Source of the DNA: an uncultured Aliiroseovarius sp.
GTDB lineage: Bacteria; Pseudomonadota; Alphaproteobacteria; Rhodobacterales; Rhodobacteraceae
Length of the DNA: 11,479 nucleotides
Direction: 5' to 3'
Assembly: GCA_938023895.1 (NCBI GenBank)
Contig: CALJDH010000297.1
Location: 1-11,479 of the forward strand
The notes below the pieces were generated by a model, which worked only from the letters and a program-made list of their open reading frames with translations, was not told the origin of the DNA and did no database searches. Each line of letters opens with the position of its first letter. Within the stretch, counting starts at the first letter, position 1. Of the stretch, positions 7,004 through 11,479 are shown piece after piece. A program made the position numbers and the translations under genes.

Positions 7004-7119
7004 ACCCCATCCCTTACGGGAATCGGTGTGTCTGCGGGGTCGCTCCCCATGTCGCACCAGACCAGAGAATTCAGCGCGGCCCGCTTGGAATGATCCGGCG
7101 GGCTTACGTTGTGAAAAAA

Positions 7120-7139
7120 GGTTCCGGAGCTACGGAACC
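7120..7139 (+). promoter_or_regulatory. Hairpin in the rpsM leader, candidate autoregulatory site
   Basis: GGTTCCG (7120-7126) and CGGAACC (7133-7139) form a perfect 7-bp stem with loop GAGCTA. It ends 21 nt before the rpsM GTG start and about 8 nt before the ribosome binding site. In E. coli the alpha operon is repressed by S4 binding to the rpsM leader. rpsD is absent from this operon, so the ligand, if any, is unknown. Confidence 0.4.
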
Positions 7140-7160
7140 GCAACGAAAAGGAAAGACTAC

Positions 7161-7529
7161 GTGGCACGTATTGCTGGCGTAAACATCCCGACCCATAAAC
7201 GGGTCCCGATCGCCCTGACTTATATTACCGGTATCGGCCATACTTCGGCTGCTGCTATCTGCGAAGCTGTGAACATCGATGTAACCCGTCGCGTGAACGA
7301 ACTGTCGGACGCTGAAGTTCTGGCAATTCGCGAGCACATCGACGCAACCTACACCGTTGAAGGTGACCTGCGCCGTGAAGTTCAGATGAACATCAAACGT
7401 CTGATGGATCTGGGCTGCTACCGTGGTCTGCGCCACCGTCGTAACCTCCCCGTTCGTGGTCAGCGTACCTCGACCAACGCACGTACTCGCAAAGGCCCTG
7501 CAAAGGCCATTGCTGGTAAGAAGAAATAA
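7161..7529 (+). CDS. rpsM: 30S ribosomal protein S13
   Basis: S13 sits in the head of the small subunit and contacts the P-site tRNA and the large subunit (bridge B1). The 122-residue protein starts [20 protein letters not shown] after the initiator. It has the helix-two-turn-helix region [15 protein letters not shown] and the basic C-terminal tail [18 protein letters not shown]...[14 protein letters not shown]. The start is GTG at 7161, with AAGGA about 8 nt upstream. It is the first gene of the alpha operon, 15 nt ahead of rpsK. Confidence 0.97.
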
Positions 7530-9216: not shown

Positions 9217-9642
9217 ATGCGTCACGCACGTGGTTACCGCCGCCTGAACCGTACTCATGAGCACCGTAAGGCCCTGTTTGCAAACATGGCAGGCTCGCTG
9301 ATCGAGCACGAGCAGATCAAAACAACTCTGCCCAAGGCAAAAGAATTGCGCCCCATCATCGAAAAGATGATCACCCTGGCAAAACGCGGCGACCTGCACG
9401 CCCGTCGTCAGGCCAACGCGCGCCTCAAAGAGGACCAGTATGTCTCCAAACTGTTTGACGTGCTTGGCCCCCGCTACAAAGACCGTCAGGGCGGCTATGT
9501 TCGCATCCTGAAAGCGGGCTTCCGCTATGGCGACATGGCGCCTATGGCGATCATCGAATTCGTCGACCGTGACGTTGCTGCCAAAGGCGCCGCCGACAAG
9601 GCCCGCGTTGCTGCAGAACTCGAAGCAGACGACGCAGAATAA
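9217..9642 (+). CDS. rplQ: 50S ribosomal protein L17
   Basis: L17 lies at the polypeptide exit side of the large subunit. The 141-residue protein begins [20 protein letters not shown]. It has the family segments [24 protein letters not shown] and [14 protein letters not shown] [17 protein letters not shown], and ends in an acidic Ala/Glu-rich tail. AGAAGGAA lies about 7-8 nt before ATG. It is the last gene of the alpha operon and is followed by a double hairpin terminator. Confidence 0.98.
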
Positions 9643-9665: not shown

Positions 9666-9670
9666 CATGG

Positions 9671-9703
9671 CCCCCGTTCCATTGGAGCGGGGGTTTTTCT
9701 TTT
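9671..9703 (+). terminator. Intrinsic terminator of the alpha operon
   Basis: CCCCCGTTCC (9671-9680) pairs with GGAGCGGGGG (9684-9693) with one T-G pair and a triloop. It is followed by TTTTTCTTTT. It closes the rpsM-rplQ transcript. Confidence 0.92.
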
Positions 9704-9902: not shown

Positions 9903-9986
9903 GTACGAAACAGCCCTCCAGAAATTGCTGTTCATCTAGTTGTCCGCGACGCGCACTGCTTTATTTTTGGATTGGAGTATAACCAT

Positions 9987-10436
9987 TTGGATAAGGTATA
10001 CATAGAGCTGGAGCCCGGCTCATGGCACGGTCATTCTATTGAAAGCATGTGGGCGACACGGCTCGACAACGGTCTATACAAAGTCAAAAATTCACCTTTC
10101 TTCGCACGCGGCATATCCTACGAGGACATCGTCGAAGTTACGCAGCGAGACGGTGTAAATATGTTCGTTAGAACAGTATTTCCATCGGGTGGGTCAACGT
10201 ACCGTATCATAGTTGAGAAAAATACGACCAAGGCGCAGTTCGAACACTTTTGGACGCCCTTGGAAGCCGAAGGCTGCACCTACGAGCAAGGTGACTTTGG
10301 CTACATCATGTACTCTGTGAATGTGCCAAAAGAAGCCGACGTACATAGGGTTTTCGCGTGCCTGAATGAAGGTGAAACACAGAAAGCTTGGGATTTCGAA
10401 GAAGGGCACTGCGGTCACGTAACTCGAACGCAGTGA
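9987..10436 (+). CDS. DUF4265-like small protein
   Basis: This 149-residue soluble protein resembles the DUF4265 family, whose function I do not know. The recognisable pattern is E-S-M-W-A then GLYKVKNSPFFARGISYEDIV (residues 19-49), followed by VNMFVRTVFPSGGSTYRIIV. No signal peptide or membrane segment is seen. The start is most likely TTG 9987, since GGAG at 9974-9977 lies 9 nt upstream. TTG 9972 is in frame but overlaps that site. The codon use is mixed and AT-richer than the ribosomal genes, which suggests an accessory gene. It has its own candidate promoter and no partner gene. Confidence 0.7.
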   Translation: MDKVYIELEPGSWHGHSIESMWATRLDNGLYKVKNSPFFARGISYEDIVEVTQRDGVNMFVRTVFPSGGSTYRIIVEKNTTKAQFEHFWTPLEAEGCTYEQGDFGYIMYSVNVPKEADVHRVFACLNEGETQKAWDFEEGHCGHVTRTQ

Positions 10437-10469: not shown

Positions 10470-10515
10470 ATTCGACGAGGTTCGCGCCAAATTTCCTGAT
10501 GACACCTCGTCGAAT
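10470..10515. repeat. Long perfect inverted repeat upstream of the aro leader
   Basis: ATTCGACGAGGT (10470-10481) and ACCTCGTCGAAT (10504-10515) are exact 12-bp inverted copies separated by 22 bp. The right arm overlaps the predicted -35 edge and fills the space to the -10 of the leader promoter. There is no T-run on either strand, so an operator for a dimeric regulator is more likely than a terminator. Confidence 0.55.
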
Positions 10516-10527
10516 CTCCGCTAGCGT
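10499..10527 (+). promoter_or_regulatory. Candidate promoter of the aro leader transcript
   Basis: ATGACA (10499-10504) and TAGCGT (10522-10527) are separated by 17 nt. The expected transcription start falls at 10534-10535, the A of the leader-peptide ATG. This fits the lack of any ribosome binding site before that ATG. The -10 match is weak. Confidence 0.4.
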
Positions 10528-10534
10528 CGCCGAC

Positions 10535-10615
10535 ATGACCCAAACCTATGCTGCAATCTGGTTTTATTTTTATCCGGGCCGACAGGCGGACGGAGGGGTC
10601 TTGGCGTGCAGATGA
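10535..10615 (+). CDS. Aromatic-rich leader peptide of the DAHP synthase gene
   Basis: This is a 26-codon ORF from ATG 10535 to TGA 10613. Its codons 9-13 are TGG TTT TAT TTT TAT, that is Trp-Phe-Tyr-Phe-Tyr, with another Tyr at codon 5. Short peptides loaded with the end-product amino acid are the hallmark of ribosome-mediated attenuation, as in trpL and pheL. This one senses all three aromatics. It ends about 30 nt before an intrinsic terminator and 105 nt before the DAHP synthase start, the first committed enzyme for the same three amino acids. No Shine-Dalgarno is present, and translation may be leaderless. The peptide itself probably has no stable function. Confidence 0.8.
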   Translation: MTQTYAAIWFYFYPGRQADGGVLACR

Positions 10616-10672
10616 CATAAGCGCGCAAAAGCAGATACCACACCAACCGCCCTCAGCAGATGGCGGTTTTTT
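10594..10672 (+). promoter_or_regulatory. Aromatic amino acid attenuator (antiterminator/terminator switch)
   Basis: Two exclusive folds are visible. The antiterminator pairs 10594-10608 (AGGG..., TTGG, GTG) with 10639-10653 (CAC, CCAA, CCCT), 11 of 15 positions pairing in three blocks. It takes up the 5' arm of the terminator (10645-10651). A further small stem, GCGTGC (10604-10609) with GCGCGC (10621-10626), could sequester the antiterminator arm. A ribosome stalled at codons 9-13 (10559-10573) would leave 10594-10608 free and allow read-through. A ribosome at the stop codon (10613-10615) would cover that arm and allow termination. The geometry matches classical attenuation; the folds are predicted by eye. 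Confidence 0.7.
10645..10672 (+). terminator. Attenuator terminator before the DAHP synthase gene
   Basis: AACCGCC (10645-10651) and GGCGGTT (10662-10668) form a perfect 7-bp stem with a 10-nt loop. The T-run extends from the stem to six T in total (10667-10672). It stands 47 nt upstream of the DAHP synthase ATG and not after any normal gene, which marks it as a regulatory terminator. Confidence 0.85.
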
Positions 10673-10719
10673 GTATCCGCCGCCACGCTCCGGGGCCTCC
10701 CGCAAGGAACCTGAGAACC

Positions 10720-11479
10720 ATGACCACCCAAATCGAAAACCTCCGCATCACCGATATGCAGGAATTGATCTCGCCAGACGAACTGGCGGCAAAACTGCCC
10801 AGCAATGATCTGGCCAGCAAAACCGTGCTGGATAGCCGCGCCGATATTCAAAAGGTGCTGCGCGGCGCAGATGACCGGCTGGTGGTCGTGGTCGGGCCCT
10901 GCTCGATCCATGACAGCAAGGCGGCATTGGAATACGCTGAACGCTTGAAGCCGTTGAGAGATGAGCTGGCAGGTGAGCTGGAAGTGGTGATGCGGGTCTA
11001 TTTCGAAAAACCCCGCACCATCAGCGGCTGGAAGGGGTTGGTAAATGATCCCGGCCTGGATGGTTCCTTCCGCATCAATGACGGGCTGGAGATGGCGCGC
11101 AAGCTCCTCCTCGATATCAACCAGATGGGCCTGCCAGTGGGGACCGAGTTCCTCGATACCGCCGTGCCGCAATATCTGTCGGACCTGATGGCCTGGGCCG
11201 CCATTGGCGCGCGCACGACCGAGAGCCAGATCCACCGCGAGATGGCCTCGGGGCTGAGCTGCCCTGTGGGGTTCAAGAACGGCACCCGTGGCAATGTGCA
11301 GATCGCCATTGATGCGGTGCGCTCGTCAGCCCATCCGCATCATTTCATGGCCTTGGCCAAGAACGGCCGTGCGGCAATTGCGGCAACCAGCGGCAACCCC
11401 GATTGCCACCTGATCCTGCGGGGCGGTGGTGGTACCAACTACGATGCGGGTTCAGTAGATGCAGCCTGTAACAAGGCCG
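10720..11479 (+). CDS. aroG: 3-deoxy-7-phosphoheptulonate synthase, class I (partial)
   Basis: DAHP synthase joins phosphoenolpyruvate and erythrose 4-phosphate, the entry step to the shikimate pathway for Trp, Phe and Tyr. The reading frame is open to the window end, giving 253 of roughly 350 residues. It is colinear with the E. coli AroF/G/H type: VVVVGPCSIHD (55-65, with the metal ligand Cys61), VMRVYFEKPRT (90-100), GWKGL, PVGTEFLD (139-146), GARTTESQ (163-170), PVGFKNGT (182-189) and LRGG (233-236). The missing part should hold the remaining metal ligands. ATG 10720 has AAGGA 11 nt upstream. An N-terminal tail of about 45 residues is present, as in feedback-inhibited enzymes. I cannot tell which aromatic inhibits it, so aroG is a family-level symbol. 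It is regulated, I infer, by the attenuator just upstream. Confidence 0.95.
   Translation, partial: MTTQIENLRITDMQELISPDELAAKLPSNDLASKTVLDSRADIQKVLRGADDRLVVVVGPCSIHDSKAALEYAERLKPLRDELAGELEVVMRVYFEKPRTISGWKGLVNDPGLDGSFRINDGLEMARKLLLDINQMGLPVGTEFLDTAVPQYLSDLMAWAAIGARTTESQIHREMASGLSCPVGFKNGTRGNVQIAIDAVRSSAHPHHFMALAKNGRAAIAATSGNPDCHLILRGGGGTNYDAGSVDAACNKA

What the first reader, a model, noticed from the sequence alone, without database searches (positions are those of the whole stretch)
10535..10672. Attenuator reading all three aromatic amino acids ahead of DAHP synthase
Seen: a 26-codon ORF with consecutive Trp-Phe-Tyr-Phe-Tyr codons, a terminator with a T-run, and a competing pairing between 10594-10608 and 10639-10653, all directly before a class I DAHP synthase gene. 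Known: leader peptides usually carry codons for one end product (trpL, pheL, hisL). Inference: this leader merges the charging state of tRNA-Trp, tRNA-Phe and tRNA-Tyr, so a shortage of any one would open the common pathway. I do not recall a described mixed aromatic leader of this kind in Rhodobacterales, but cannot rule it out.
Basis: partly seen in the sequence, partly recalled or inferred. Interest (0 to 1): 0.88.

Follow-up and report, generated by a model that had tools for sequence, protein, structure and literature searches.

The report
Three-aromatic attenuator before DAHP synthase
A tiny gene that reads tryptophan, phenylalanine and tyrosine codons sits in front of an enzyme that starts aromatic amino acid synthesis and looks like an off-switch released when these amino acids run short; related switches precede the same enzyme in many other bacteria.

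Summary
The leader is real. A 26-codon ORF (10535-10615, MTQTYAAIWFYFYPGRQADGGVLACR) is followed by a U-tailed terminator (10645-10672) and a class I (AroFGH-type) DAHP synthase gene at 10720. Aromatic leader plus terminator precedes 76 of 110 related genes examined, including 17 of 17 carriers found among 394 family genomes. The same detector gave 0 of 109 reverse strands, 0 of 317 upstream tiles, 1 of 1090 shuffles. A covariance model of 16 family leaders matches 29 of 30 leader loci tried outside that set, in Alphaproteobacteria, Xanthomonadales and Burkholderiales, and 0 of 8 leaderless controls.

The leader has no Shine-Dalgarno; its promoter is placed so that transcription should start at the AUG (41 of 44 testable alphaproteobacterial leaders), as known for Sinorhizobium trpL.

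Best reading: classical ribosome-mediated attenuation with mixed aromatic input (55 of 76 leaders carry F, W and Y; 21 F and Y). The response to each amino acid is inferred. Closest precedent: Corynebacterium AroR (Phe-Tyr-Phe) before aroF.

The parts
10499..10504 (+). -35-like element ATGACA
   Evidence: 17 nt before the -10-like element; xTGACA at this place recurs in the alphaproteobacterial leaders
10522..10527 (+). -10-like element TAGCGT, ending 7 nt before the leader ATG; start of transcription predicted at or next to 10535 (leaderless mRNA)
   Evidence: promoter at the leaderless position in 41 of 44 testable alphaproteobacterial leaders, 2 of 2200 shuffles; no Shine-Dalgarno-like word here
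10535..10615 (+). leader peptide ORF, MTQTYAAIWFYFYPGRQADGGVLACR*
   Evidence: comparable leaders in 76 of 110 upstream regions
10559..10573 (+). aromatic codon run TGG TTT TAT TTT TAT (W F Y F Y)
   Evidence: a ribosome modelled as stalled at any of these codons leaves the antiterminator arm free
10585..10589 (+). antiterminator 5' arm, outer helix (GGCGG), inside the ORF, starting 14 nt after the first base of the last aromatic codon
   Evidence: GGCGG in 70 of 76 loci; 14 nt in 41 of 76; 16 of 16 family rows
10596..10600 (+). antiterminator 5' arm, inner helix (GGGUC)
   Evidence: RNAalifold consensus; 92.5% of cells paired in 16 family rows; only 0.29-0.71 probable in the window alone
10634..10639 (+). 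antiterminator 3' arm, inner helix (GAUACC, A bulged)
10647..10651 (+). antiterminator 3' arm, outer helix (CCGCC), shared with the terminator
   Evidence: CCGCC in 73 of 76 loci, CCGCT in 3
10645..10668 (+). intrinsic terminator hairpin AACCGCC / GGCGGTT
   Evidence: 100% of cells paired in 16 family rows against 21-71% when slid
10667..10672 (+). T-run of the terminator (first two T are in the stem)
10720..11479 (+). class I DAHP synthase gene (AroFGH type), cut by the contig end
   Evidence: TIGR00034 2.6e-116; best matches among solved structures are entries named DAHP synthetase, Phe-regulated or Phe-sensitive

Best explanation
This is a ribosome-mediated transcription attenuator of the classical leader-peptide kind, controlling a second (class I) DAHP synthase. 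Transcription starts at or next to the leader AUG, so a ribosome can load on the bare 5' end and follow RNA polymerase closely (inferred from the promoter position). When Trp-, Phe- and Tyr-tRNA are all charged, the ribosome runs past the aromatic codons and over GGCGG, so CCGCC pairs with the second GGCGG and transcription stops at the U-run. If one of the three is short, the ribosome halts in the aromatic run. From the last aromatic codon back, its leading edge stops just short of GGCGG, which then captures CCGCC before the terminator's 3' arm is made, and aroG is transcribed. Shown: ORF, codons, arms, spacing, conservation, promoter position. Inferred: translation, kinetic capture, the response to each amino acid, and the OR logic.
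For: Leader plus terminator before 76 of 110 class I DAHP synthase genes. The same detector gives 76 of 109 true upstreams, 0 of 109 reverse strands, 0 of 317 further-upstream tiles, 1 of 1090 shuffles, 0 of 126 window tiles. All 76 leaders have both F and Y in the run; 55 also W. The order of the aromatic residues differs between lineages while aromatic identity is kept, as expected if tRNA charging is read rather than a fixed arrest peptide. The 5' arm core sits at 14, 17 or 20 nt from the last aromatic codon in 62 of 76. Where CCGCC becomes CCGCT (3 of 76), the 5' arm becomes AGCGG in 2. Own arms pair better than exchanged arms (1341 against 1243 +/- 18, 0 of 300 permutations) and than shuffled ORF tails (0 of 200; 71 distinct pairs). 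Before the terminator 3' arm is made, a ribosome stalled at the last aromatic codon gives antiterminator probability above 0.5 in 66 of 76 (window 0.99); a ribosome at the stop codon gives terminator above 0.5 in 76 of 76. In the window every codon up to and including 10571 is productive (0.92-0.99) and from 10574 on the arm is covered. A model built on 16 family leaders matches 29 of 30 other leader loci, 0 of 8 controls. In 388 family genomes the 15 hits at E 1e-5 or better all lie before aroG (14 of these leaders were in the model, so what this adds is that nothing else scores like them).
Against: No expression data. With the whole RNA present, equilibrium favours the terminator even with the ribosome stalled (above 0.5 in 60 of 76; window 0.74; antiterminator above 0.5 in only 15 of 76), so the model needs kinetic capture. 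Inside the family the core helix never varies, so covariation is not shown there (observed score reached in 211 of 500 shuffles). Shuffled GC-rich ORF tails also sequester the arm in 533 of 710 trials, against 71 of 71 real. In the 16 close family rows GGCGG lies 22-28 nt before the stop codon, so a ribosome waiting at the stop probably does not cover it and must block pairing sterically or by cutting the inner helix (inferred). Ten of 76 loci fail the stall test: five because the arm starts under 12 nt from the last aromatic codon (L041, L063, L109, L110, L117), and five on folding (L005, L019, L074, L084, L113), of which L084 is a family member. The closest relative with a reported response, C. 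glutamicum AroR, answers to Phe but not Tyr.
Confidence: 0.85

Rival explanations
1. It is an attenuator, but only one amino acid (most likely Phe) controls it; the Trp and Tyr codons are passengers, as reported for Tyr in C. glutamicum AroR.
For: AroR (Phe-Tyr-Phe) before aroF was reported to respond to Phe and not Tyr (passage in PMC11802643). F is the commonest aromatic codon in the runs (TTT 169 + TTC 41 of 450). W is absent from 21 of 76 leaders.
Against: Both F and Y are in the run in 76 of 76 leaders, and W in 17 of 17 family members. In the model F, Y and W each have a productive codon in 46 of 54 W-bearing leaders tested.
Confidence: 0.3
2. The leader is an arrest peptide: a particular nascent chain halts the ribosome in response to a free aromatic amino acid or another ligand, rather than to uncharged tRNA.
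For: The peptide downstream of the run looks alike within clades (ADGGVCAF, LAEEGLRSP, LADREG).
Against: That stretch is the codon image of the antiterminator arm (GGCGG). The aromatic residues are permuted between lineages (FWYFYYP, SFWYFSY, FYFWYYGF, KFYFYFFWY), which a specific arrest sequence would hardly tolerate.
Confidence: 0.07
3. A plain terminator plus a chance short ORF, with no regulation.
For: Folding energy of the window stretch is ordinary (z -0.66), and the terminator scan found no more sites than shuffles.
Against: Leader and terminator occur together before this gene in three classes and almost never in controls; model matches in 29 of 30 leader loci and 0 of 8 controls.
Confidence: 0.03
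4. The terminated RNA or the peptide also acts in trans, as rnTrpL and peTrpL do in Sinorhizobium.
For: The short RNA would be a leaderless mRNA ending in a terminator, like rnTrpL (passages in PMC7298713 and PMC10117765).
Against: No target or function was looked for here; the conservation is explained by the cis role.
Confidence: 0.1

Closest known systems
C. glutamicum AroR leader before aroF (Neshat 2014, not read; seen through passages of PMC11802643 and PMC4046766)
   Same: Leader peptide with mixed aromatic codons (Phe-Tyr-Phe) before a DAHP synthase operon; transcription attenuation.
   Different: Actinobacterium; Phe-Tyr-Phe and no Trp mentioned; reported to answer to Phe and not Tyr. 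No sequence comparison with it was made here.
Sinorhizobium meliloti trpL / rnTrpL attenuator of trpE(G)
   Same: Alphaproteobacterial leader-peptide attenuator whose RNA begins with the AUG of the leader ORF (passages in PMC7298713 and PMC10117765).
   Different: Trp codons; controls the Trp branch, not the common pathway.
trpL and pheL (pheA) leaders of E. coli; ilv and thr leaders (ilv and thr recalled)
   Same: Ribosome position decides between antiterminator and terminator. Mixed inputs are known for branched-chain and threonine leaders (recalled).
   Different: In E. coli trp the antiterminator arm lies after the leader stop codon (recalled). Here the outer arm lies inside the ORF, 22-28 nt before the stop in the 16 close family rows.
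uORFC-13-1 motif before aroF in Acholeplasma (PMC8632094, passages)
   Same: Candidate uORF attenuator with at least one Phe codon before a DAHP synthase gene and a terminator.
   Different: Reported only from Acholeplasma and environmental sequences; computational prediction; no structural comparison made here.

Membership tests
ribosome-mediated (leader peptide) transcription attenuators | short translated ORF with clustered codons for the pathway's end product(s) | tested here: met
   WFYFY at 10559-10573; 76 of 110 relatives. Translation itself not shown.
ribosome-mediated (leader peptide) transcription attenuators | intrinsic terminator between the ORF and the biosynthetic gene | tested here: met
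   10645-10672; 100% of cells paired in 16 rows
ribosome-mediated (leader peptide) transcription attenuators | alternative antiterminator that uses the terminator's 5' arm | tested here: met
   GGCGG/CCGCC plus inner helix; covariation inside the family not shown because the core is invariant
ribosome-mediated (leader peptide) transcription attenuators | stall position leaves the antiterminator arm free | tested here: met
   14 nt in the window and in 41 of 76 loci; modelled only, 66 of 76 pass
ribosome-mediated (leader peptide) transcription attenuators | read-through rises when the cognate tRNA is uncharged | not testable with these tools
   needs an experiment
leaderless leader-peptide mRNAs (Sinorhizobium trpL type) | transcription start at the AUG of the leader ORF | tested here: inconclusive
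   promoter position fits in the window and in 41 of 44 testable alphaproteobacterial leaders; no mapped start
Rfam 15 families | match to an Rfam covariance model | tested here: not met
   no match at 10520-10680 at E up to 5
C. glutamicum AroR leader | homology to AroR | not tested
   AroR sequence not fetched

The most novel reading that the evidence does not exclude
One homologous attenuator family, undescribed in what I could search, guards AroG-type DAHP synthases across Alphaproteobacteria, Xanthomonadales and Burkholderiales. It is a three-tRNA OR gate built as a ruler: an aromatic codon 14 nt or more before GGCGG counts as an input, so evolution adds or drops Trp as an input by codon swaps (W changed 6 times by parsimony on a tree where the leader itself changed twice). 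In Alphaproteobacteria it runs on a leaderless mRNA and turns on a spare class I enzyme beside a class II one.
Probability: 0.45. Interest if true: 0.7.

Novelty: new member of a known kind. Interest (0 to 1): 0.55.

Why it matters
The first step of a shared pathway must answer to three end products. E. coli does it with three isoenzymes under the repressors TyrR and TrpR (passage in PMC5343134). This element would do it with one 26-codon leader. Because leaders with and without Trp codons exist in related organisms, it is a natural test of whether one leader can sum several tRNAs, which AroR, the one relative with a reported response, seemed not to do for Tyr. It also gives a class of small ORFs with a simple sequence signature that annotation can easily miss.

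Tried and rejected
Antiterminator register as first proposed: 67.7% of cells paired in 16 family rows against 96.3% for the consensus register, and probability 0.0 in the modelled window RNA. Folding energy as proof: uninformative (z -0.66). Covariation inside the family as proof: uninformative because the core is invariant. A leader before the other DAHP synthase: leader plus terminator in 0 of 14 class II upstreams examined, out of 30 carriers; 2 of the 14 have an aromatic ORF without a terminator. The same element before other genes in the family: 14 hits weaker than E 1e-5; in 12 of them a frame of 108 to 506 codons ends within 70 nt before the hairpin, as for ordinary gene-end terminators; one (L151) also passes my leader detector, but a 436-codon frame ends just before its hairpin, so I take its ORF to lie in the end of a coding sequence. 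That search scored 9 candidates per genome, and two carriers with diverged leaders (G198, G294) gave no row, so weak relatives could be missed. W content explained by loss of the class II enzyme: no, 30 of 30 alphaproteobacterial carriers have it. Residue 211 of the enzyme (recalled Phe/Tyr feedback position) as an explanation of W: A, S and G all occur with W leaders.

Literature: ten full-text searches, passages from nine papers and a term count of zero in a tenth gave no description of this proteobacterial leader. The library holds open-licence papers only. Two papers asked for were not held. Vitreschak 2004, Panina 2001 and Neshat 2014 were not read, so an earlier prediction cannot be excluded.

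Limits: the detector thresholds were set after looking at the sequences. In one search each in-frame ATG of a real leader was allowed, but one per shuffle. 'Alphaproteobacterial' means all leader loci outside my hand-made lists of beta and Xanthomonadales loci (from the record titles, or from the genome searches). The tree is a quick FastTree, midpoint rooted, with weak nodes. Before, L111 (cut contig) and L025 (shifted frame) were dropped and L116 was set to leader by hand; L058, L064 and L065, which have an aromatic ORF but no terminator, counted as without leader.

Full report
What is there. The window is contig C297 of a 1.89 Mb, 56% complete assembly. Its closest named relatives by this enzyme are two Leisingera genomes, 81% identical, so I take it to be of the Rhodobacteraceae; no call names it. 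After the ribosomal protein genes ending in rplQ (9217-9642) and a DUF4265 gene (9972-10436) come the leader ORF 10535-10615, the terminator 10645-10672, and from 10720 a class I DAHP synthase gene. The codon run is TGG TTT TAT TTT TAT, with another TAT at 10547.

Conservation. Of 110 upstream regions examined, 76 have an aromatic short ORF followed by a U-tailed hairpin, 4 the ORF only, 3 the hairpin only, 27 neither. With 150 nt or more of upstream sequence the count is 76 of 109; the same detector gives 0 of 109 on the reverse strand, 0 of 317 on tiles further upstream, 1 of 1090 on shuffles, 0 of 126 on tiles of the window. The aromatic ORF alone is less telling: 10 of 109, 11 of 317, 89 of 1090 and 5 of 126. 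All 17 family carriers are positive. Of the 13 other class carriers, 11 are positive (L085, L107-L110, L112-L115, L117, L118). L116 has a terminator and a short leader with only F-Y. L111 is cut by a contig end with only the end of a terminator visible. Among the negatives are enterics, vibrios, Rhodocyclales and Methylotenera (titles). On an enzyme tree, presence against absence changes twice among 108 tips, shuffled minimum 21.

One family. A covariance model from 16 family leaders was run on 38 other loci, 30 with a leader and 8 without. It matches 29 of the 30 at E up to 1 (25 of them at E 1.3e-5 or better; the miss is L105) and none of the 8 (the table has 30 rows, one being a second, reverse-strand match in L018). 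In 388 family genomes there are 29 hits at E up to 0.01. The 15 at 1e-5 or better all lie before aroG, and 14 of these leaders were in the model. The other 14 look mostly like gene-end terminators. Two carriers with diverged leaders, G198 and G294, gave no row in that search.

Antiterminator. The leader's own 3' part repeats the terminator's 3' arm. CCGCC (73 of 76; CCGCT in 3) can pair with the terminator's GGCGG or with GGCGG inside the ORF (70 of 76). In L104 and L074 the arms read AGCGG/CCGCT; in L105 only one of the two is changed. Exchanging arms between loci lowers the pairing score (1341 observed, 1243 +/- 18, 0 of 300), and so does shuffling the ORF tail (925 +/- 21, 0 of 200; 71 distinct pairs). 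RNAalifold on the RNA before the terminator 3' arm finds the outer helix in four groups and an inner helix in three of them. In the family alignment 96.3% of cells pair, against 36-59% when slid, but the shuffles are not exceeded because the core does not vary.

Ruler. From the first base of the last aromatic codon to the 5' arm core is 14 nt in 41 of 76, 17 in 11, 20 in 10. With a footprint edge 12 nt ahead of the first base of the A-site codon (assumed), the last aromatic codon is about the last place where a stalled ribosome leaves the arm free. In the window, stalls up to 10571 give antiterminator probability 0.92-0.99 and from 10574 the arm is covered. F, Y and W each have at least one productive codon in 46 of 54 W-bearing leaders tested. 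The stall test fails in 10 of 76: five because the arm starts under 12 nt away, five on folding, L084 of the family among them. With the terminator arm present, equilibrium favours the terminator (60 of 76), so capture must be kinetic, as in the classical model.

Promoter and start. No Shine-Dalgarno-like word precedes the leader AUG of the window; of 43 alphaproteobacterial rows 2 have one. Instead ATGACA-17 nt-TAGCGT ends 7 nt before the AUG (10499-10527), and such a layout is found in 41 of 44 testable alphaproteobacterial leaders (not in L084, L105, L107; L063 untestable), 4 of 6 Xanthomonadales and 1 of 24 betaproteobacterial ones; shuffles 2 of 2200, 1 of 300, 11 of 1200. In many Burkholderia-group and Oxalobacteraceae rows a TATAAA- or TATAGT-like box lies further upstream. 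S. meliloti trpL is a known leaderless leader ORF (passages).

Which amino acids. 55 of 76 leaders have F, W and Y in the run, 21 F and Y, none fewer (L116, with F-Y, lies outside the 76). By parsimony Trp changed 6 times among 77 leader-bearing tips, shuffled minimum 14. So mixed input is the rule and Trp is the variable one.

Physiology. All 30 alphaproteobacterial carriers also have a class II DAHP synthase; 0 of 14 of its upstream regions examined has leader plus terminator. The class I enzyme is thus an extra one, plausibly called up on aromatic shortage (inference). It is absent from the 20 other genus genomes searched, but rplQ lies within 1.5 kb upstream in 8 of 16 other family carriers. 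The conserved gene order suggests old presence with many losses; transfer is not excluded.

What is known. Leader-peptide attenuation is classical. Mixed Phe-Tyr input before a DAHP synthase is reported for C. glutamicum AroR, where Tyr had no effect (passage). A Phe uORF is predicted before Acholeplasma aroF (passage). Putative attenuators ahead of operons with tyrA, among them the DAHP synthase-tyrA operon of two Vibrio species, are listed in PMC1173090 (passage). No Rfam family matches and no held paper that I found describes the present family, but key subscription papers were not read. Verdict: a new, widely spread member of a known kind, with good support for the mechanism and none yet for the three-input response.

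Noticed in passing
L064, about 110-200 nt upstream of aroG at 1501 (Anaerolineae MAG): A leader-like ORF MSRYFSFFSWYGYFAAGQVERAVVRPRDV and, by eye, a strong hairpin with a poor T-run precede a DAHP synthase outside the leader-bearing clades; it may be an independent mixed aromatic leader.
   Followed up: partly
L025, upstream of aroG (Candidatus Burkholderia humilis): The leader's reading frame is shifted relative to other Burkholderia-group leaders while the terminator is kept, as if the leader were decaying.
   Followed up: partly
window 10720-11478: The enzyme is 94% identical to one in another genus (G400), whose leader peptide is the same but one residue shorter, yet it is absent from the 20 other genomes of the window's own genus; transfer or a misbinned contig is possible.
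   Followed up: partly
window protein 10720-11478, residue 211: The residue aligned with E. coli AroG Ser211 (recalled as a Phe/Tyr feedback position) is Ala; A is found in 45 of 76 enzymes with leader and terminator, S in 30 of 34 others.
   Followed up: partly
window 10634-10638 and 10673-10677: GATAC and GTATC flank the terminator and pair in the minimum-energy fold; L004 has the second word too, L003 does not. Purpose unknown.
   Followed up: no
window 7115-7193: Match to the alpha-operon ribosome binding site (RF00140) below the gathering score (29.7 against 38 bits), in the ribosomal protein cluster.
   Followed up: no
window 9669-9695: Terminator-like hairpin with T-run after rplQ, separating the ribosomal operon from what follows.
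   Followed up: no
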